From NCBI RefSeq assembly GCF_000737195.2, contig NZ_JALM01000081.1, positions 62,001-126,000 on the forward strand: a stretch of 64,000 nt of DNA, given 5' to 3'. The position numbers and the translations under genes are program-made. The notes beneath the pieces were generated by a model. It searched no databases. It saw only the letters and a program-made list of their open reading frames with translations, and was not told where the DNA came from. This document shows positions 6,699 through 56,237 of the stretch, one piece after another (position 1 is the first letter of the stretch; each line of letters opens with the position of its first letter). The DNA is from Sciscionella sediminilitoris. Lineage in GTDB: Bacteria > Actinomycetota > Actinomycetes > Mycobacteriales > Pseudonocardiaceae.

Positions 6699-9600
6699 AT
6701 GCATCGAAGCAAGCGCGTCGCAAGGACGAATGGTGCACCGGACCTCAACTTCGCTGTTTCCGACTTCGGTCGTGCCGTCACTCGGAAGCTGATCACAGGC
6801 CACGGTTCCCACGAGGATCACTTGCGCGGTCCCTTCGAGAAGATGCTCGCCGCGATTGCGAACAGCATCGGGCTTCCCATCACCATGATCGGTGAAGCTC
6901 GTCTGCCTGAACTGGCGCTTCGCCCGGACTACGCCGTAGACGTGGCTAGCGCGCGCATCGGTTACGTCGAGTTGAAGAAGCCCGGACATGGTGTTCCCGA
7001 CACCTGGTCAAGTCCCTCAGCACATGACAAAGAGCAGTGGGAGAAGTTCAAGCTGCTCCCGAATGTTCTCTACACCGACGGCGAGCAGTTCGCACGCTTC
7101 AAGTTCGGGAAATTGCAGGGTGAGGTCGCCCGGTTGACACCAGGGCTCGACCACGCAGGCGAGAAGCTGCGTGCGCCGAATCGCGTTTTCGCTCGTGTCA
7201 TAACCGACTTCCTTCTTTGGGAACCAGAACAGCCTCGCTCGCTCGAGGATCTGATACGTCTGACGTCGAACCTCTGCCGACTCCTGCGTGACGACGTTGC
7301 CGCCGAGTTGGACCGGGAACGTACCGGCCGTTCCCAGCAGCAGACCTTCAGCGCCCTGGCAATGGACTGGCGCCAGCTTCTCTTCCCTAACCTCACCGAC
7401 GAACAGTTTGCCGACCAGTACGCGCAGACAGTCACCTTCGCTCTACTGTTGGCCCGAGTGGAAGGCGTAAGCTTCCAAGGACGTTCCATTGGTGAAATAG
7501 CCCGCTTGCTCGGCAAGAAGCATTCACTGATGGGGCGAGCGCTCACCATACTCACCGACCAGCAGGAGCACGAGCTGAGCATCGCGCTCACGACAATGCT
7601 CAGAGTCGTGAGCGTCGTCGATTGGGCAGCATTCCCCGACGATTCTTACTCGATGCTCTACGAGAGCTTCCTCGACAACTACGATCCGGCACTACGTCGC
7701 AGAAGCGGTGTCTACTACACCCCAGCTGAACTGGTGTCGTTCATGACTCGCTTCGTGGATGAAGTACTCCGGAAGAAGCTCGGCCGCCGACTCGGGTTCG
7801 CCGATCGCGACGTGATCGTGGTCGATCCGGCCATGGGGACCGGAAGCTTTCTCGCCGAAGTCATCAACGCGGTCGCCACGACCATCGCTGCCGATGAAGG
7901 CCCTGGTGCGGTCGCACCGCACCTTCGAGAACTGGCGGGACGGTTGATCGGCTTCGAGAACCAGGCTGCCCCGTACGCGATCGCCGAACTACGGGTGCAC
8001 AGTCTACTGAAAAGACGCCACCGCTCGGAGGTACCACACAGTGAGCGCAGGTTTCTCGCGGACACCCTGGACGACCCTGACGTACAGGCGCTGCCGCTGG
8101 GAACCATGTACGAGGCGATCAACAAATCCCGGCGCGGCGCGAATCAGGTCAAACGCGAAGAGCCGGTCATGGTGGTACTTGGCAATCCACCATACGCTGA
8201 CAAGGCGGCCGGCACAGCGCCTTGGATCGAGAATTCGGGCTCCGGCAAGGACGCTCCGGGACTGAAAGCCTTTCGCAAGGCCGGGAACGGGCGCCATGAG
8301 TACGTGCTGTCGAACAAGTACGTCTACTTCTGGAGATGGGCCACGTGGAAGGCATTCGACGCCCATCCTGGGCACCCATCAGGGGTAGTCGCCTTCGTTT
8401 GCTCCGCAGGTTTTCTCGCCGGGCCAGGATTTGCCGGGATGCGTGAGTACCTTCGCCGCACGGCCGACGAGGGATGGATCATCGATCTCACCCCGGAAGG
8501 GCATCAGCCTCCGATGAACACCAGATTCTTTCGGGCCAACCAGCAGCCCATTTGCCTCGCAGTGTTCATCCGGCGGGGCGGGCCCAATCCGGAGGCCCCA
8601 GCACGAGTGCACCGTTCATCCGCTGCAGGAACAGTGAGCGAGAAGATTGAGACGCTCAAGCTGCTGACGATCAACGACGTTCGATGGCAGCGATGCGCAG
8701 ACGGTTGGCAGGCACCGTTCGATCAAAGCGGATCCGAAATGTGGGTCTCCATGCCGTCTCTCCCCGACCTCATGCCATGGGCTGTTCCGGGTTTGAAACC
8801 AAACCGAACGTGGGTCTACGCGCCCGAACCAGAGACGCTCCTCGAACGATGGGCCACACTGATCCGGTCCCCAAGATCCGAAAAGGCCGAAATGCTGAAG
8901 GAAACACGGGACAGTCAAATAGGCTCCGAAAAAGCACACATACCAGGAATGGCCGATCATATCGGCACCATTGCAGCAGAGACCGGGCCATGTCCCACCT
9001 TATGTCGCACGACACACAGATCCTTTGATCGCAAGTGGTCGATCCCCGATTTCCGGCTCCATGATCGACCACGCCCGCCGTTGTGGTATACACAATCCGA
9101 CCAGCAAATTTTCGTCGTAGAACAACACGCGCACCCGATCAGTGCGGGTCCCGCTTTGATCTTCTCATCCCTGATCCCGGATATGCATAGCCATTCGGGC
9201 CGTGGCGGCCGTGTTCTACCCCTGTACCGAGACGCTGCGGCCAGCTCCGCCAACATCAGCCCTGGACTGCTCGAATTTCTATCCCAACACCTCAAATGTG
9301 CGGTCAGCGCCGAGGACCTCGTGGCATATATCGCCGCTGTCACCGCGCATCAGGGGTTCACACGTCGGTTCGCCCATGAGCTAAGACAACCTGGAATAAG
9401 GATCCCGCTCACGAAGAGAGGGCCGTCCTGGCGCACAGCGGTCGCTTTGGGGCGGGAAGTACTCTGGCTCCACACGTACGGGGAACGCTGTGTCGACCCA
9501 GCTGCCGACCGTCCAGCTTCCGTGCCTCGAATGAAGGCAACAGCAGACCGGCCGACCGTACAGGTGGGCATACCGGATACACCGGATCGAATGCCCGACA

Positions 9601-10004
9601 GGTTTCGCTACAACGAATCGAACCGGTCCCTCCACATCGGCGACGGTATCATCGCGCCAGTTAGTCCCGAAGTCATGGCCTTCGAGGTTTCCGGGATGCC
9701 AGTTATCAAACACTGGTTCGGCTACCGGAAGAAGAACCCTGGCGGATCCCACTCCTCACCGCTCGACGACATCGTCGCCACTATATGGACGCCCGCCATG
9801 ACCACTGAACTACTCGAGCTCCTCAATGTGGTGGGGCGATGCGTAGCCCTCGCGCCTAAGCAGGACAAGTTGCTGACCAAGATTCTGGCAGGCCCCTTGA
9901 TCACGACCGAAGACCTGACATCAGCTGGGATTCTTCCGGTTCCCAAATCAGCAACGAAAACCCCTAAGCCCGACGACCAGGCCGCACTGTTCGAAACCAG
10001 CTAA
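6699..10004 (+). CDS. Single-chain restriction endonuclease-N6-adenine methyltransferase (type IIG/ISP-like)
   Basis: A 1,101-residue protein with an AAGGGG ribosome site about 6 bp before the ATG. The N-terminal part carries a PD-(D/E)xK-like nuclease signature (Asp77, then Glu91 and Lys93 in YVELKKPG). The middle is a gamma-class N6-adenine methyltransferase: motif I DPAMGTGSF at 376-384 and motif IV NPPY at 496-499. The C-terminal third is probably the target-recognition region. No helicase motifs were seen, so it is shorter than type ISP enzymes of about 1,600 residues. No separate restriction or specificity gene is adjacent; one polypeptide probably cuts and methylates. Codon use is markedly less GC-rich than its neighbours, a sign of transfer. 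It could also be an orphan methyltransferase with a dead nuclease. Confidence 0.8.
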   Translation: MHRSKRVARTNGAPDLNFAVSDFGRAVTRKLITGHGSHEDHLRGPFEKMLAAIANSIGLPITMIGEARLPELALRPDYAVDVASARIGYVELKKPGHGVPDTWSSPSAHDKEQWEKFKLLPNVLYTDGEQFARFKFGKLQGEVARLTPGLDHAGEKLRAPNRVFARVITDFLLWEPEQPRSLEDLIRLTSNLCRLLRDDVAAELDRERTGRSQQQTFSALAMDWRQLLFPNLTDEQFADQYAQTVTFALLLARVEGVSFQGRSIGEIARLLGKKHSLMGRALTILTDQQEHELSIALTTMLRVVSVVDWAAFPDDSYSMLYESFLDNYDPALRRRSGVYYTPAELVSFMTRFVDEVLRKKLGRRLGFADRDVIVVDPAMGTGSFLAEVINAVATTIAADEGPGAVAPHLRELAGRLIGFENQAAPYAIAELRVHSLLKRRHRSEVPHSERRFLADTLDDPDVQALPLGTMYEAINKSRRGANQVKREEPVMVVLGNPPYADKAAGTAPWIENSGSGKDAPGLKAFRKAGNGRHEYVLSNKYVYFWRWATWKAFDAHPGHPSGVVAFVCSAGFLAGPGFAGMREYLRRTADEGWIIDLTPEGHQPPMNTRFFRANQQPICLAVFIRRGGPNPEAPARVHRSSAAGTVSEKIETLKLLTINDVRWQRCADGWQAPFDQSGSEMWVSMPSLPDLMPWAVPGLKPNRTWVYAPEPETLLERWATLIRSPRSEKAEMLKETRDSQIGSEKAHIPGMADHIGTIAAETGPCPTLCRTTHRSFDRKWSIPDFRLHDRPRPPLWYTQSDQQIFVVEQHAHPISAGPALIFSSLIPDMHSHSGRGGRVLPLYRDAAASSANISPGLLEFLSQHLKCAVSAEDLVAYIAAVTAHQGFTRRFAHELRQPGIRIPLTKRGPSWRTAVALGREVLWLHTYGERCVDPAADRPASVPRMKATADRPTVQVGIPDTPDRMPDRFRYNESNRSLHIGDGIIAPVSPEVMAFEVSGMPVIKHWFGYRKKNPGGSHSSPLDDIVATIWTPAMTTELLELLNVVGRCVALAPKQDKLLTKILAGPLITTEDLTSAGILPVPKSATKTPKPDDQAALFETS

Positions 10005-49758: not shown

Positions 49759-50190
49759 ATGTCAGACGAAACCGTTGAGCTGAGCCCCACGGACTGGGTA
49801 CAGGACCAGACGAAGAAGATCCTCGAGACCGGAACCACCGAGGGAATCGAGATCCTCGGATCCCCGATCGTGCTGCTGACGCTGCGCGGCGCGAAGTCCG
49901 GCAAGCTGCGCTACACGCCGCTGATGCGGGTGGAGCACGAGGGCAAGTACGCGGCCGTCGCCTCCAAGGGCGGTGCCCCGGAACACCCCACCTGGTACTA
50001 CAACATCAAGGCGCATCCCGAGTTCCCGCTGCAGGACGGCACCGTGACGCGGACCTACGTGGCGCGCGAGATCGAGGGCGCCGAATACGACGAGTGGTGG
50101 GAGCGCGCGGTCGCCGCCTACCCGTCCTACGCCGACTACCGCAAGAAGACCGACCGGCGTATCCCGGTGTTCCTGCTCGAACCGAAGTGA
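49759..50190 (+). CDS. F420-dependent nitroreductase family protein (Ddn-like)
   Basis: A 143-residue split-barrel flavin/deazaflavin protein. [23 protein letters not shown] and the later [11 protein letters not shown] with [19 protein letters not shown] are diagnostic of the Ddn family (FDOR-A), which use F420H2 to reduce quinones or nitro groups. This supports an F420-producing actinomycete. It stands alone, convergent with the MATE gene. Confidence 0.9.
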
Positions 50191-50228
50191 TCCTCCCGGT
50201 CGGCGGCGGAGGTCCCGCCGCCGACCGG

Positions 50229-51605
50229 CTACCGTTGCGGGACCTCCGCCCGGGTGAACCGCACGAGCAGCTGTACCGCGGTGGCCCCGAATCCGAGGCA
50301 GAGCCCCACCCAGACCCCGGCTGCCGCCCAGCCGAACACATAGGCGCACAGCAGCATCCCCGGCACCCCCACGCCCCAGTAGCCGACCAGGCTGCTGCGG
50401 AATCCGGCCTTGGTGTCGTCGAGCCCGCGCATCAACCCGACCGCGATGTTCTGCCCGCCCTTGGTGATCTGCTGGATGATGCCGAGCAGCAGCAGGGTCG
50501 TCGCCGTGCCGAACACGACGGTGTCGTTCGAGCCGAGGAACAGGCCGAGCACCGATCGCGGGGCGAGCAGGTAGACCGCGGCGAGCACCAGCTGCAGTGC
50601 CCCGGCGAGCGCGAAGGCCCGGTACGCGATCCGGCGGGGCTCCGCCCGGTCGCCACGCCCGACCGAACGGCTGACCAGGATCGAGGCGCCCTGGGAGATC
50701 CCGATGCTGAACTGGTACACGATGTAGGTGATCTGGTTGACCAGGTTGTGCGCGGCCAGTGCGACCGGTCCGAAGTTCCCCATCACCAGGGTGGCCACCG
50801 AGGTGATGCCCGCCTCGGAACCATAGGTGAGACAGGCCGGGGTGCCGAGCCGGACGATCTCGGCCACCCGCTGCCGCTCGGCGCGCCAGCCGCGCAGCGA
50901 GAGCGCGGGCCTCAGGTGCGGATCGCGGCGCACGATCAGCAGGTAGGCCAGGAAACTCAGCAACTGGACCAGCGCGGTGGCCAGGCCGATCCCGGTCACC
51001 CCGATGATGGGGAGGCCGAGCCAGCCGTAGAGGAAACCGCCGTCCAGGACCAGGTTCACCCCGATCGAGGCGATCGTGACCCCGAGCAGCGAACCGGCCC
51101 GGTGCATGCCGACCGCGAACTGCCGCAGCACCTGCAGCCACAGCATCGGGATCAGCCCGGGTGCCAGGGCGGCCATCATCGGGAACGCGACCGCCACCAC
51201 ATCCGCGGACTGGCCGAACCACGGCAGGACACAGCCGATCCCGATGACCGCCCCGGCGGCCAGTGCACCGACCACCGTGGCCACCGCGAACGAGGCCCGC
51301 ACCACGCCGCGGACCTCCTCGTGCACCGCCCGCTCCCCGTTCGCAGCACCGGATTCGTGCCTGCCGAGCGTCCCGGCGACGAGATTGCCCGCCGGGGTGA
51401 CCATGCCGACCGTCATGGTGCGGATCTGGTTGTAGAGCAGCGCGGCCAGTCCGCCCGCGGCGACCGCCCTGACCCCGAGTGTGCCCATCATGGCGATATC
51501 GGTGGTGGTCAGGGCGACCTGGGCCAGCTGCACCCCGGTCAGCCGGGTGCCGAGCGCGAGCAACGGGCGGAATCCGTTGCGTGGCGCGGTTTCCGTCACG
51601 GTCAC
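50229..51605 (-). CDS. MATE family efflux transporter
   Basis: About 458 residues from the GTG at 51605 (GGGAG upstream), 5 bp after the stop of the preceding methyltransferase. Two sets of six membrane helices with the MATE pattern (LTGVQLAQVALTTTDIAMMG, later SIGISQGASILVSRSVGRGD). It would export a small molecule with Na+ or H+. Last gene of the FecCD-methyltransferase operon, so it may export the metal ligand or drug made or handled there. Confidence 0.88.
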   Translation of the reverse strand: MTVTETAPRNGFRPLLALGTRLTGVQLAQVALTTTDIAMMGTLGVRAVAAGGLAALLYNQIRTMTVGMVTPAGNLVAGTLGRHESGAANGERAVHEEVRGVVRASFAVATVVGALAAGAVIGIGCVLPWFGQSADVVAVAFPMMAALAPGLIPMLWLQVLRQFAVGMHRAGSLLGVTIASIGVNLVLDGGFLYGWLGLPIIGVTGIGLATALVQLLSFLAYLLIVRRDPHLRPALSLRGWRAERQRVAEIVRLGTPACLTYGSEAGITSVATLVMGNFGPVALAAHNLVNQITYIVYQFSIGISQGASILVSRSVGRGDRAEPRRIAYRAFALAGALQLVLAAVYLLAPRSVLGLFLGSNDTVVFGTATTLLLLGIIQQITKGGQNIAVGLMRGLDDTKAGFRSSLVGYWGVGVPGMLLCAYVFGWAAAGVWVGLCLGFGATAVQLLVRFTRAEVPQR

Positions 51606-51609
51606 GCCG

Positions 51610-52398
51610 TCACTCCCCAGGTGGCGGGACCGCCCGGCCGGTCGCGCCGCCGTAGATCGCGGTGACATACAGCATCGATCCCTCGAGCTCGGTCGGTGTC
51701 ATCTCGGTGTTGTCGTACATCTCGATGTCACGAAAACCGTGCGAGGTGAGATAGCGCTCCAGCTCCATCGGGAACAACAACCGGTAGCGCGCCAGGTCCT
51801 CCTCGGTCGCCCCTTCCGGCAACGACCAGGTCCGGTGCCTGGTCAGGATCTGGTTGCGGCGGTCCACCGTGAACGAGGCCTGACCGGTCGCCTTGAAACC
51901 CTCCAGATCGATGGAGAAATCCCTGCGCGAACCCAGACCGTGCAAATCCCCGATGGGATTGTGCGTGTCGAACACCAGCAACGTCCCGGGTTTCGCGTGC
52001 GCTTCGAAGGTGCCCATCGCCTTGGCGATATCGCTGCAGGAGTGCACATTCTCGATCACCCAGCCGAGACAGGTGATCACATCGAACCTGCCGCCCACCC
52101 GCACATCCCGGATGTCCCCCACCTCGAACCGCATGTCCGGGTACTGCTCCCGGGCGTAGGAAACCATCGCCTCCTGATAATCCACACCGGTGCAGTCATA
52201 ACCCTGATCCCGCAGATACGCGAGCTTGAAAGCCGTCCCGCAGCCGATATCGAGAATCGAACTCGGCGGCTCCTTGCCATTGCGCACCAGCAGGGCATGA
52301 CACATCTTCTTCAGCTGGTCACCCGTCTCCGCGTAGCGGAACACATAATCGTAGAGTTCGGGATTCCGATAGAGATAATTCGTGAGTTTCGGGTCCAC
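51610..52398 (-). CDS. Class I SAM-dependent methyltransferase, atypically low GC
   Basis: A 262-residue methyltransferase (GTG start). Motif I is ILDIGCGTAFKLAYL, the strand-2 acid is in CTGVDYQEAM, and ITCLGWVIENVHS is motif II. Its codon use is clearly less GC-rich than the flanking genes (for example AAT, TAT, GAA), suggesting later acquisition. No substrate is assignable; the N-terminal LYRNPELYDYVF is seen in natural-product N/C-methyltransferases. Sits between methyltransferase 2 and the MATE exporter. Confidence 0.82.
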   Translation of the reverse strand: MDPKLTNYLYRNPELYDYVFRYAETGDQLKKMCHALLVRNGKEPPSSILDIGCGTAFKLAYLRDQGYDCTGVDYQEAMVSYAREQYPDMRFEVGDIRDVRVGGRFDVITCLGWVIENVHSCSDIAKAMGTFEAHAKPGTLLVFDTHNPIGDLHGLGSRRDFSIDLEGFKATGQASFTVDRRNQILTRHRTWSLPEGATEEDLARYRLLFPMELERYLTSHGFRDIEMYDNTEMTPTELEGSMLYVTAIYGGATGRAVPPPGE

Positions 52399-52430
52399 GC
52401 CTGATTCCCTCGGTGTCGGTGAGCCGGACG

Positions 52431-53228
52431 CTAAGCCGCGGCCAGGAAGATCTTGCGGTGAAAGTCCTGCCAGATCACGGCGAATTCGGTGAAGCCGGCG
52501 GCGTTGAGTGCCGACTCGTGACTTTCCAGGGTGGTGCCCTCCGGCCGATCCGAACCGGAGAACAAGCGGCCACGGGCCGGTGCGAGCACCCGATCACGTT
52601 CGGCGAAGGCCTCGCCCAGTTCGGGCACCGCGCGCATGGCCTCCCACCAGTCCTGCCAGGCCTCGCTACCCGCGGCAAGGGCACGGTCCTGGCGGGCACG
52701 GTCGATCGCCCTGGCCGCCGCCGCGTAGCCGGATGCGGGACTGGACAACGGGAATCCGTCGAAGTTCAGGAAAATCCCGCCCGGGCGCAGCAGCCCGGCT
52801 AGGGATTCGTAGAGCTCGGTGAGCGCGTCCGGGGTGAGCCAGTGCAGCGCCGTCGAGGAGAGCACCGCATCGAACCGCCGCTGCGCCAGCCGATCGGTCC
52901 AGTCCGGCTCGCGCAGATCGGCCGTGACCCAGCGCAGGCGTCCGCCCATATCACCGAGCGCGCCCCGGCCCACGGTCTGCAGCACCGGATCCAGATCCAC
53001 CGCGACACTGCTCACGTTCTCCCGGTGCTCCAGCAGGCGTTTGCTGAGCGAACCAGGGCCCGCGGCCAGGTCCAGGACCACGATCTCCTCGGGAAGCAGC
53101 GCGTCGAGTACCGACAGCATCGCCTCGAATCCGCGTTCCCTTCCCGGGACGTAGACGCTCTGTTGCGCATCCCAGCGCTCGAGCAGATCCGTCCACACCA
53201 GGGCCGGGAGTGTTTCGGTGAAGGTCAT
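52431..53228 (-). CDS. Class I SAM-dependent methyltransferase
   Basis: A 265-residue enzyme. Motif I is VLDLAAGPGSLS, the strand-2 acid is VAVDLDPVL, with HWLTPDALTELYESLAGLLRPGGIF as motif III region. GGAGAATGC precedes the ATG. It follows the binding-protein gene by 46 bp and precedes the second methyltransferase by 32 bp. Substrate unknown; both could methylate the same compound. Confidence 0.85.
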   Translation of the reverse strand: MTFTETLPALVWTDLLERWDAQQSVYVPGRERGFEAMLSVLDALLPEEIVVLDLAAGPGSLSKRLLEHRENVSSVAVDLDPVLQTVGRGALGDMGGRLRWVTADLREPDWTDRLAQRRFDAVLSSTALHWLTPDALTELYESLAGLLRPGGIFLNFDGFPLSSPASGYAAAARAIDRARQDRALAAGSEAWQDWWEAMRAVPELGEAFAERDRVLAPARGRLFSGSDRPEGTTLESHESALNAAGFTEFAVIWQDFHRKIFLAAA

Positions 53229-53274
53229 GCATTCTCCATGAGGTTGTCGTTGTTCGGCAATGGTGCTCGGCGCG

Positions 53275-54258
53275 CTAGTGCTGCCGGGGCATGTTCCGGG
53301 CCATGTTCTCCAGACCGTTCACCGACAGGGTGCCTTGGGACGAGTACTCGTAAGGCTGGACGAACAGCGCGTTGTTGCGCGCCGCGGCCAGATTCGAGGC
53401 TCCCGGAAGGGCGAGGAACTTCTTCCTGGCCGCTTCCGCGGTGTCGCTGTACGAGAGAATCATGAGGACATCGGGATTGCGCGCGGCGATCTCCTCCATG
53501 TTCGCCTCGAACACCCGGCTGTCCGCGTTCCCGAACACATCCTTGGCGCCGAGCGCGGCGAGCTGGGTGTGCGCCATCGAACGGCGGCCGTATGCTTCGA
53601 GGGAATTGTCGAACACGATCACCGCGGCCGCGGTCTTTCCGCGCAGCGGTGCGGTCGAGGTGGCTCGTTCGATCCGCTCTCGCATGCTCCCGGCCGCGGC
53701 GGAGGCCTGCGGTTCGGTGCCCAGCAACCGGCCGTAGAGCCGCAGATCGCTGAACACATCCGCGAAGTCCGCGGTGCCGTCGCTGGCCCCGGGCGCGTGG
53801 TTCGAGCCGCAGTTCCCGCGCAGGCTGAGCATCGGGATCCCCACCGCCTCCAGGGATTCCGGGGTGATCGACTCACTGACCGAGCCCACGACCAGATCCG
53901 GCTGCATGGCGATCAGGTTCTCCCTGGTGAGTTCACCACCCGAGCCCAGCTGCGGAACCTTGCGCACCGCGGACCGGATCTCCGAGGTGTACGGGGCGCT
54001 CTTCATCCCCGCATCGTCCCGGCCGACCAGTTTTCCCGCGGCACCGGCCGAGTACAGCGACGTCACCTCCGAAGGGCCGAGCGCGACCACCCGTTCCGGT
54101 TTGCGCTCGATCTGCACTCGGTGACCGCAGTTCTGGACCGTAGTGGGAAAACCGTTCCCAGTGCCCGGCGAACGGCCCGCGGAATCACCGGCACCGCAAC
54201 CACTCAGCACGAGCACGGCTACCGAGGCCGCACCGGCGACCTTCATTCCGGATCGCAC
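53275..54258 (-). CDS. ABC transporter substrate-binding lipoprotein (FecB/BtuF-like)
   Basis: About 327 residues from the GTG at 54258, chosen for AAGGAAG; an ATG lies 12 bp later. Signal peptide with lipobox LSGC. Then a class III binding protein with a long spine helix: RVVALGPSEVTSLYSAG and NPDVLMILSY. This family binds Fe-siderophores, haem, cobalamin or other metal complexes outside the cell. Third gene of the FecCD operon. Ligand unknown. Confidence 0.87.
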   Translation of the reverse strand: MRSGMKVAGAASVAVLVLSGCGAGDSAGRSPGTGNGFPTTVQNCGHRVQIERKPERVVALGPSEVTSLYSAGAAGKLVGRDDAGMKSAPYTSEIRSAVRKVPQLGSGGELTRENLIAMQPDLVVGSVSESITPESLEAVGIPMLSLRGNCGSNHAPGASDGTADFADVFSDLRLYGRLLGTEPQASAAAGSMRERIERATSTAPLRGKTAAAVIVFDNSLEAYGRRSMAHTQLAALGAKDVFGNADSRVFEANMEEIAARNPDVLMILSYSDTAEAARKKFLALPGASNLAAARNNALFVQPYEYSSQGTLSVNGLENMARNMPRQH

Positions 54259-54283
54259 AACGTCTTCCTTTCCTCGCCGGCCA

Positions 54284-55075
<792 letters not shown>

Positions 55076-55100
55076 CGCACAGTCCCCTTTCCCTTGCCGC

Positions 55101-56198
55101 TCATACATTTCCCGCATAGAACCGGCGGACCAGTACCGCCAGGAAGGGCGCGCCGACCACCGCGGTCACGATGCCCAGCGGTAGTTCTCGCGGGGCGAAG
55201 GCCACCCGCGCGAACACGTCCGCCCACGCCAGGAATATCGCGCCGATCAGCGCGGCCACCGGGAAAACCCGCCGATGTGCCCCGCCGACGCAGAGCCGCG
55301 CGATGTGCGGTACCACCAGGCCCACGAACCCGATTCCCCCGGCGACCGCGACAACGGCGCCCACGCACAGCGAGACCAGGGCCAGCGAGAGCGCCCGGAA
55401 CCGGTCCGGTGAGACTCCCAGGGTGCGCGCGCTGTCGTCGCCGACCGCCAAGGCGTCGAACCGGCGCGCCCACAGCACGAGCAGGATCAGCGCGGCCAGT
55501 ACCACGACGACCGCGATCCCGATCGACGACCACTGCGCCCTGGCCAGTGAACCCAGCAACCAGAACAGCACCGCGCGCGCACCATCCGGGGCATCCGAGA
55601 GGAAGATCAGGAAGCTGGTCACCGCGGAGAGCACGAAGCCGATCGTCACCCCCGCCAGCAGCAGCCGGATCGAGGTGATCCGTCCCCCGACCCTGGCGAG
55701 CAGGAAAAGCAGGGCGGTCGCCGCGGCACCGCCGATGAAGGCACTCCCGGTCAGGCCCGCCGCCCCCATGCCGCCGCCGACCCCGAACAGGATCGTCGCG
55801 GCCGCCCCGGTGGATGCCCCCGAGGTCACACCCAGAATGTAGGGATCGGCGAGCACATTACGCACCAGGGCCTGCAGCGCGACACCGGTCATGCCGAGCC
55901 CGGCTCCGACCGCGATCCCGAGCAGCACCCGCGGAATGCGCACCAGCCAGACGATCGTGTCCGCCGACCCGGGCCAGTCCGGCACCGCGGGCAGGCCGGA
56001 CAGATGGTGCCCGACGATCCGGAGCACGGTGCCCGGCGGAACACCCACCGGTCCGATCCCGACCGCCACCGGAATCGTACCGAGCAGGATCAGCGAAAGA
56101 CCGCCAAGCCAGGTGAGAGTGTGCCGCCGTCGCCGCGCGTGTTCCAGGTCATCACCTGCACCACCCCACGCGATGGGCGACGACCGATACTGCGACAT
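55101..56198 (-). CDS. ABC transporter permease (FecCD/BtuC family)
   Basis: About 365 residues from the ATG at 56198 (GGGGG upstream). Ten membrane helices; RIPRVLLGIAVGAGLGMTGVALQALVRNVLADPYILGVTSGA and the coupling region GGIGFVGLVVPHIARL are FecCD hallmarks (quoted in parts: residues about 100-140 and 285-300). The cytoplasmic N-terminus of about 35 residues is longer than usual. First gene of the operon, 20-25 bp downstream of a Fur/Zur-like palindrome. Confidence 0.9.
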   Translation of the reverse strand: MSQYRSSPIAWGGAGDDLEHARRRRHTLTWLGGLSLILLGTIPVAVGIGPVGVPPGTVLRIVGHHLSGLPAVPDWPGSADTIVWLVRIPRVLLGIAVGAGLGMTGVALQALVRNVLADPYILGVTSGASTGAAATILFGVGGGMGAAGLTGSAFIGGAAATALLFLLARVGGRITSIRLLLAGVTIGFVLSAVTSFLIFLSDAPDGARAVLFWLLGSLARAQWSSIGIAVVVVLAALILLVLWARRFDALAVGDDSARTLGVSPDRFRALSLALVSLCVGAVVAVAGGIGFVGLVVPHIARLCVGGAHRRVFPVAALIGAIFLAWADVFARVAFAPRELPLGIVTAVVGAPFLAVLVRRFYAGNV

Positions 56199-56217
56199 GC
56201 GACCCCCAGGCTCGACT

Positions 56218-56237
56218 GAAGATGACAATCATTTTCA
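56218..56237. promoter_or_regulatory. Fur/Zur-like box upstream of the FecCD operon
   Basis: TGACAATCATTTTCA (56223-56237) is a 7-1-7 near palindrome (six of seven pairs) like the actinobacterial Zur consensus TGaaAatgatTttCA. The overlapping 56218-56236 stretch fits the 19-bp E. coli Fur consensus at 15 of 19 positions. It stands 20-39 bp before the permease ATG, a repressing position. Actinobacterial iron control normally uses IdeR/DtxR boxes, which are not seen here, so zinc (Zur) is the more likely signal. Confidence 0.6.

What the first reader, a model, noticed from the sequence alone, without database searches (positions are those of the whole stretch)
50229..56237. Zur/Fur-type operon with importer, two methyltransferases and MATE exporter
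A Fur-family palindrome precedes a single six-gene run: FecCD permease, ATPase, lipoprotein, two SAM methyltransferases and a MATE pump. Actinobacterial iron genes use DtxR/IdeR, so a Fur-type box suggests zinc. Import plus modification plus export of one ligand is the logic of a metallophore system, yet no known backbone synthase is present. This is the best candidate for an undescribed system in the window.
Basis: partly seen in the sequence, partly recalled or inferred. Interest (0 to 1): 0.66.

Follow-up and report, generated by a model that had tools for sequence, protein, structure and literature searches.

The report
Zinc-controlled import, methylation and export operon
An actinobacterium carries a six-gene unit, predicted to be switched by a zinc sensor, that joins a metal-chelate importer and an exporter with two methylating enzymes but shows no gene for building the chelator, and related units recur in other actinobacteria beside apparent zinc or nickel switches.

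Summary
In a Sciscionella genome an exact match to the Zur motif (56223-56237) lies 24 bp before six co-directional genes with gaps of 4-46 bp: FecCD permease, ATPase, lipoprotein SBP, two class I SAM methyltransferases (MT1, MT2) and MATE. The genome's other exact match serves a CobW-like gene and Cys-free L33; weaker sites lie at Cys-free L31/S14 and znuA. Zinc/Zur is thus well supported, by sequence only.

Seven of the 31 carry opine-zincophore genes CntKLM; 24 hit none of eight backbone baits. Orthologous importers with MT1 plus another second methyltransferase recur in two other families, with Nur-like (nickel) sites instead. Some MT2 relatives (70%, about 33%) lie in two kinds of boxed metallophore-like cluster. 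I propose import of a Zn-chelate, methylation of the ligand, expulsion by MATE; tailoring of a home-made chelator is a close rival. Ligand, metal and reaction are untested. An extra methyltransferase in FecCD opine-zincophore clusters was already reported (PMC7438024).

The parts
56223..56237 (.). Zur-type box TGACAATCATTTTCA (7-1-7 motif; a one-mismatch overlapping copy at 56217-56231)
   Evidence: fits published Zur motif tGaNNatSatNNtCa (PMC5472717, passages)
55101..56198 (-). FecCD-type permease of ABC importer (start ATG 56198; the longer ORF to 56228 overlaps the box)
   Evidence: PF01032 297 bits; 60-64% to importers of L166-L170, L174, L175, L184
54284..55075 (-). ATPase of the importer (start GTG chosen by likeness to L169)
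   Evidence: PF00005; 62-71% to L166-L170, L174, L175
53275..54246 (-). Substrate-binding lipoprotein (Peripla_BP_2)
   Evidence: PF01497; best solved relative by sequence 5cr9, E 3.5e-42; 34-38% to L166-L170, L174, L175
52431..53228 (-). MT1, class I SAM-dependent methyltransferase
   Evidence: PF13649; importer near its relatives in 31 of 53 loci against 3 of 57 random stretches
51610..52398 (-). MT2, class I SAM-dependent methyltransferase; best solved relatives by sequence are sugar-amine N-methyltransferases
   Evidence: PF13649; 3px2, 3bxo, 3pfg, E 1e-14 to 6e-14; 70-71% relatives in A. azurea and G196
50229..51605 (-). MATE-family exporter (start GTG 51605, 4 bp after MT2)
   Evidence: PF01554; NCBIfam NorM-type 229.7 bits, cut-off 449; TIGR00797 142.8, cut-off 147.4
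50186..50235 (.). Hairpin between convergent genes, likely terminator
   Evidence: -35.6 kcal/mol, z -4.88, 0 of 200 shuffles as good

Best explanation
A Zur-repressed zinc-metallophore handling operon. Supported by sequence: a Zur-type box just before the first gene should keep the six genes off when zinc is plentiful, so that they are made under zinc shortage together with Cys-free ribosomal proteins. Inferred: the lipoprotein catches a small metal-chelate and FecCD/ATPase bring it in. MT1 and MT2 then methylate the ligand on donor groups, which weakens zinc binding or marks the spent ligand, and MATE expels the product. The ligand is not built by this operon, so it is either taken from neighbours or made from a common metabolite by genes outside. 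Methylation after import is the least certain part; I favour it because the methyltransferases stay with importers of this kind whether or not backbone genes are seen.
For: Box: exact here and at a CobW/L33 promoter, weaker at L31/S14 and znuA. Operon and box present in S. marina, all six genes under purifying selection. Importer near MT1 relatives in 31 of 53 loci (12 of 15, 11 of 20, 8 of 18) against 3 of 57 random stretches of 20 of the same genomes, Fisher 5e-10 (loci are not independent, several share a genus). 24 of the 31 hit none of the CntM, CntL, CntK, ATP-grasp, PALP, OCD, OrnDC, DUF364 baits. Orthologous importer + MT1 + a second, different methyltransferase in 5 genomes of family f34 and 2 of f43. 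SBP-MT1-FecCD-ATPase with a Zur-like site and no PF10100 in two genomes with near-identical loci. Importer + MT1 + another methyltransferase, with Zur-like sites, in G407. Strict Nur-like sites: 9 in 0.84 Mb of MT1 loci, 0 in 0.91 Mb of random stretches, all 9 at promoters of MT1 or its importer operon.
Against: No experiment; ligand, metal and reaction unknown. MT1 also sits with a full CntKLM backbone in 7 loci, which suits tailoring. 22 of 53 MT1-family loci have no importer nearby, and 14 of 25 MT2-family loci have none, so parts of both families do something else. MT1 of Sciscionella has no supported place in the tree beside the MT1s of the orthologous importers. No MATE and no MT2 bait hit in any of the 53 MT1 loci: the exact six-gene set is known from two close species only. 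S. marina has one further exact box at no known zinc gene. 'No backbone' rests on local gene content and PF10100; other backbone genes were not searched genome-wide, and the genome is 96.87% complete in 215 contigs.
Confidence: 0.42

Rival explanations
1. Biosynthesis/tailoring: MT1 and MT2 finish a metallophore of the cell's own, from a common metabolite or a backbone made by unlinked genes; MATE secretes it and FecCD takes back the zinc complex.
For: CntKLM beside MT1 and FecCD in 7 loci; MT2 at 70-71% inside a cluster with OrnDC-, OCD-, aminotransferase- and PALP-type enzymes in A. azurea and G196 and at 31-35% inside ATP-grasp/DUF364/PALP clusters with Zur-like boxes in 8 loci; published view for opine zincophores (PMC7438024); MT2 resembles amine N-methyltransferases.
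Against: No backbone gene recognised at the Sciscionella operon or at the f34/f43 orthologues nor among named shared neighbours of 16 MT1 loci; PF10100 absent genome-wide in G000, G001, G338, G323.
Confidence: 0.36
2. Uptake of cobalamin, F420-0 or haem by a BtuCDF-like importer; methyltransferases act on the tetrapyrrole or cofactor.
For: Best NCBIfam scores of permease and ATPase are F420-0, B12 and haem models; the second methyltransferase of the orthologues scores best against CpaM, under its cut-off.
Against: Those scores are under the curated cut-offs (281.8 vs 437.35; 229.6 vs 461; 242.1 vs 261); no riboswitch at gathering score in the window (no Rfam match at all) or in 8 orthologue loci (only match an sRNA, Ms_IGR-7, in L170); Zur- or Nur-like sites.
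Confidence: 0.06
3. Iron-siderophore importer with unrelated methyltransferases that happen to be co-transcribed.
For: FecCD/Peripla_BP_2 transporters are best known for iron (recalled); 22 of 53 MT1-family loci lack an importer.
Against: Zur box shared with Cys-free ribosomal genes; no IdeR-type match in the window at 3 mismatches (a weak test); pairing of MT1 with importers far above random.
Confidence: 0.08

Closest known systems
Opine-type zincophore clusters of actinomycetes with FecCD importer (CntKLM; PMC7438024)
   Same: FecCD/SBP/ATPase importer, exporter, extra PF13649-type methyltransferase (MT1 relatives at 49-53%, 47-50%)
   Different: No CntK/L/M at the locus, PF10100 absent genome-wide; second methyltransferase MT2; MATE instead of MFS
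Amycolatopsis azurea cluster found here (L091/L123; relative L122 in G196)
   Same: MT2 at 70-71%, followed by SBP, FecCD, ATPase; Zur/Fur-like sites at the cluster start
   Different: Carries OrnDC-, OCD-, aminotransferase-, PALP-type enzymes and two ABC half-exporters; no MT1 bait hit in the stretch
Importer plus two methyltransferases in families f34 and f43 (L166-L170, L174, L175)
   Same: Orthologous importer (FecCD 60-64%, ATPase 62-71%), MT1 at 43-49%, no backbone recognised
   Different: Second methyltransferase is of another subfamily; Nur-like instead of Zur-like promoter site; no MATE bait hit
Streptomyces coelicolor Zur regulon (PMC5472717, passages read)
   Same: 15-bp 7-1-7 box; Cys-free ribosomal paralogues and zinc uptake under one box
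   Different: Its zincophore coelibactin has its own cluster SCO7676-92 (NRPS-type: recalled); this operon has no synthase
[S,S]-EDDS (aes) zincophore of Amycolatopsis japonica (recalled; paper not found in the library)
   Same: Zur-controlled, Pseudonocardiaceae (recalled)
   Different: Gene content not compared; a recalled lead only

Membership tests
Zur regulon | box tGaNNatSatNNtCa at the promoter | tested here: met
Zur regulon | same box at diagnostic Zur targets of this genome | tested here: met
   CobW_C/L33 (exact) and L31/S14 (two mismatches) promoters; znuA weaker, 16.5 against 28.3, the matrix having been built from Sciscionella boxes with the window's among them
Zur regulon | derepression by zinc depletion, Zur binding | not testable with these tools
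   needs RNA and protein work
Opine-type zincophore cluster | CntM, staphylopine dehydrogenase PF10100 | tested here: not met
   absent in G000 and G001, present in 7 of the 18 genomes of the search
Opine-type zincophore cluster | CntL, nicotianamine-synthase-like enzyme | not tested
Opine-type zincophore cluster | importer plus exporter in one cluster | tested here: met
FecCD/Peripla_BP_2 importers | PF01032 permease, PF01497 SBP, PF00005 ATPase | tested here: met
   all over cut-off
BtuCDF cobalamin importer | equivalog scores of BtuC/BtuD/BtuF, cobalamin riboswitch | tested here: not met
   214.6 vs 334, 130.8 vs 281, 20.4 vs 234; no Rfam match in the window
F420-0 importer | TIGR03869/TIGR03873/TIGR03868 cut-offs | tested here: not met
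   281.8 vs 437.35, 276.4 vs 372.4, 54.6 vs 392.4

The most novel reading that the evidence does not exclude
Ligand methylation is a general, unrecognised unloading or disposal step of zinc and nickel metallophore uptake in actinomycetes: SAM-dependent methyltransferases travel with FecCD- and Opp-type importers of different ligand specificity, under Zur in some lineages and Nur in others, and this operon is a self-contained import-methylate-expel cycle without any backbone synthase.
Probability: 0.27. Interest if true: 0.82.

Novelty: new variant of a known kind. Interest (0 to 1): 0.6.

Why it matters
How zinc or nickel is taken off an imported opine-type or EDDS-type chelator inside the cell is, as far as I know (recalled), not settled. 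A set of operons that keep importer and methyltransferases but show no synthase makes a role in post-import handling directly testable, and gives a search handle (MT1 beside an importer, Zur- or Nur-like box) for backbone-free metallophore systems.

Tried and rejected
AlphaFold models of MT2 (3-row alignment, pLDDT 40.6) and MT1 (2 rows, 45.7) were too poor, so no fold search was run. Cobalamin, F420-0 and haem importers: scores under cut-off, no riboswitch. Iron/IdeR: no match. Search for the EDDS (aes) paper: not listed. Zur-like one-mismatch 15-mers at C121 (inside an integrase by eye) and C74 were set aside as not clearly promoter sites. A first idea, to use the MT2-family loci without importers as control, was dropped as circular; the random stretches replace it.

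Sampling. The 53 MT1 loci are top-ranked hits, not a random sample: the first 15 after the two Sciscionella operons and the next 20 of the family search (113 of 390 genomes with a hit; G343:C146 skipped), and 18 of the class search (71 of 394; G077 already held, G719 and G627 skipped, near contig ends). Not counted: S. marina's own operon, G000's paralogue L121, the extra G337 stretches L184/L185, and loci with 1.5-kb flanks. L148 is a 9-kb stretch. Random control: 60 stretches drawn by script; 3 not fetched because they overlapped another draw (G323, G315) or an MT1 locus (G476); 57 used. At the laxer setting the counts are 31 of 53 and 4 of 57.

The Nur-like pattern was chosen after seeing the f34, L174 and L175 promoters, which give 7 of its 9 hits; L163 and L171 came after. 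Relaxed to 3 mismatches, 9 of 20 hits in the MT1 loci lie within -250 to +30 of the MT1 start (0.35 expected if uniform, 0.8 after shuffling), L174 and L175 among them; random stretches have 12 relaxed hits. The S14 translation was out of frame; one search repeats it in frame, no Cys. In one search the ATPase and SBP comparisons include some codons before my chosen starts.
Full report
What is there. On the minus strand six genes follow one another with gaps of 25, 37, 46, 32 and 4 bp (starts chosen by me): FecCD permease, ATPase, SBP, MT1, MT2, MATE. A strong hairpin ends the run. The next gene is convergent; upstream, a prpB-like gene (by eye) on the same strand ends 69 bp before the box.

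The box. TGACAATCATTTTCA fits the published 15-bp Zur motif of Streptomyces coelicolor (passages of PMC5472717) and ends 24 bp before the first ATG. In the genome the stricter 15-mer TGANAATNATTNTCA has two exact places. The other one, with a one-mismatch copy beside it, lies between a CobW_C protein and an L33 without cysteine. Two overlapping two-mismatch boxes lie between L31 and S14 paralogues (Pfam), both without cysteine. The only ZnuA match of the genome has a weaker site 24 bp before its ORF, score 16.5 against 28.3 for the window box (itself in the matrix), with about 5 sites of 12 or more per Mb after shuffling. Other one- and two-mismatch places are not at recognised zinc genes, and the reversed pattern gives 6 places against 26. 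In S. marina the exact pattern occurs at this operon, twice at the CobW/L33 promoter and at one further place without a known zinc gene. Zur is the likely regulator; 4 FUR-family matches exist and which one is Zur was not worked out.

Conservation. All six genes are kept in S. marina (88-97% identity) with dN/dS 0.07 (FecCD), 0.11, 0.20, 0.13 (MT1), 0.08 (MT2), 0.16 (MATE), and the promoter is nearly the same. Both methyltransferases are thus maintained. The two species are close, so box conservation alone is modest evidence.

MT1 relatives. Family search: 113 of 390 genomes at E 1e-15 or better; class search: 71 of 394 at 1e-25. Of 53 top-ranked loci fetched beyond the Sciscionella operons, a FecCD- or Opp-type importer (permease FecCD or a binding protein) lies in the stretch of about 8 kb each side in 31: 12 of 15, 11 of 20, 8 of 18. 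The same baits hit 3 of 57 random stretches of equal length from 20 contigs of the same genomes (Fisher 5e-10). Many loci share a genus, so the P value overstates independence. Seven of the 31 carry CntK, CntL, CntM and MFS (L106-L112; PF10100 in all 7 genomes; CntL and CntK NCBIfam models hit under their cut-offs in the two proteins tested). The other 24 hit none of eight backbone baits. Two (L115, L116, near-identical) are SBP-MT1-FecCD-ATPase with a Zur-like site at the SBP start, in genomes without PF10100. Twelve of the 31 have an Opp/SBP_bac_5 importer (L118-L120, L146, L147, L149, L150, L152, L153, L155, L164, L171), two of them with FecCD too. Among 16 MT1 loci compared gene by gene, the families shared by three or more that I could name are SBP5, permeases, ATPases, MT1, FecCD, MFS and, in some, a ribonucleotide reductase (by eye); three further shared groups I could not name, probably antisense.

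The closest relatives of the operon. In five genomes of family f34 and two of f43 the importer is orthologous by identity (FecCD 60-64%, ATPase 62-71%, SBP 34-38%) and stands with MT1 (43-49%) and a second class I methyltransferase of another subfamily. I looked through the ORFs of L166, L169, L174, L175 and, more briefly, L167, L168, L170. G337 has the importer with a relative of that second methyltransferase divergent to it. G407 has an A. azurea-type importer, a divergent MT1 and another methyltransferase, with Zur-like sites. So an importer with two methyltransferases and no recognised synthase exists in several forms.

Metal. None of L166-L183 has a Zur-like site of score 15 or more. The f34/f43 promoters carry TGC[AG]A-N5-T[CT]GCA, which resembles the Nur (nickel) box tTGCaa-N5-ttGCAA (passage of PMC3919588). 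The strict pattern has 9 hits in the MT1 loci (0.84 Mb) and 0 in random stretches (0.91 Mb), 9 in 1.41 Mb of all loci against 1 after one shuffle. All 9 lie at promoters of MT1 or of its importer operon; five are from one genus and two from another. L171 has a FUR-family gene right after MT1. I read this as divalent metals, zinc here and perhaps nickel elsewhere; Nur binding was not tested and no known Nur target in those genomes was checked.

MT2 relatives. 100 of 390 family genomes at 1e-20. A. azurea and G196, of one genus group, hold a 70-71% relative inside a cluster with OrnDC-, OCD-, aminotransferase- and PALP-type genes, two ABC half-exporters, SBP, FecCD, ATPase, with Zur/Fur-like sites at the start. 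Of 25 MT2-family loci fetched, 11 have importer genes: three of that kind (L122, L123 and none other; L091 is a second copy of L123's genome) counted as two, eight at 31-35% with ATP-grasp, DUF364, PALP, SBP_bac_5 and a Zur-like site of score 15 or more near the ATP-grasp start in all 8, and L141, a looser case without a site of 15 or more. The other 14, among them all fetched relatives at 36-42%, have none.

Interpretation. Supported: operon, box, conservation, recurrent pairing. Inferred: the ligand is a metal chelate, the methyltransferases act on it, MATE expels it. Two orders of events remain open. If the methyltransferases belonged to backbone building, they should be lost with the backbone; instead they stay with importers in 24 of 31 loci where no backbone is recognised. 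This favours action on the imported ligand, but a chelator made from a common metabolite by methylation alone, or a backbone made elsewhere, fits nearly as well. The tree of MT1 does not settle it: Sciscionella forms its own branch, nearest by path to the CntKLM-type MT1s, without supported placement.

Prior knowledge. PMC7438024 (passages and section 8 read) reports extra methyltransferases in opine-zincophore clusters and notes that the actinomycetes with FecCD alone are those with the extra methyltransferase; it suggests tailoring. Searches for zincophore/methyltransferase/FecCD/Zur/Nur combinations listed no title that names a backbone-free importer-methyltransferase operon; apart from passages of PMC5472717, PMC3919588, PMC7055735 and PMC9774294 I saw listings only, and subscription papers are mostly not held.

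Noticed in passing
L042, L043, L044, L132, L134, L137, L138, L140: Uncharacterised-looking cluster in Pseudonocardiaceae: ATP-grasp, DUF364, PALP, MT2-like methyltransferase, Opp-type importer, with a Zur-like box near the first gene in all 8; a candidate zincophore cluster.
   Followed up: partly
L091:1600-13700, L122: Amycolatopsis-type cluster with OrnDC-, OCD-, aminotransferase-, PALP-type enzymes, ABC exporters, MT2 relative and FecCD importer; perhaps a diaminopropionate-type metallophore cluster.
   Followed up: partly
L002:6629-6643 and L143:1501-1515: Zur-like 15-mer (one mismatch / exact) inside a tiny possible ORF between DoxX-like and hydrolase genes (by eye) in both Sciscionella; role unknown.
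   Followed up: no
L124, L127, L129, L130, L133, L135, L136: MT2-superfamily methyltransferases near a shared Asn_synthase-like gene (gene cluster 10; Pfam of one member); possibly a separate natural-product family.
   Followed up: no
L171:8623-9129: FUR-family regulator directly after MT1 at the end of an Opp-importer run with a Nur-like site in front.
   Followed up: partly
L174, L175: The importer/two-methyltransferase operon adjoins CopA-like ATPase genes plus a CDF-like or CsoR/CopZ-like genes (by eye), so copper was not excluded there.
   Followed up: no
window 6699-10004: 1101-aa ORF in a stretch of lower GC (about 0.59-0.60 against mostly 0.68-0.72), perhaps acquired; not searched against any library.
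   Followed up: no
L151:2805-4069: DsrE-like gene (by eye) and a TehB-like methyltransferase, each with a Zur-like site upstream, in G407.
   Followed up: no
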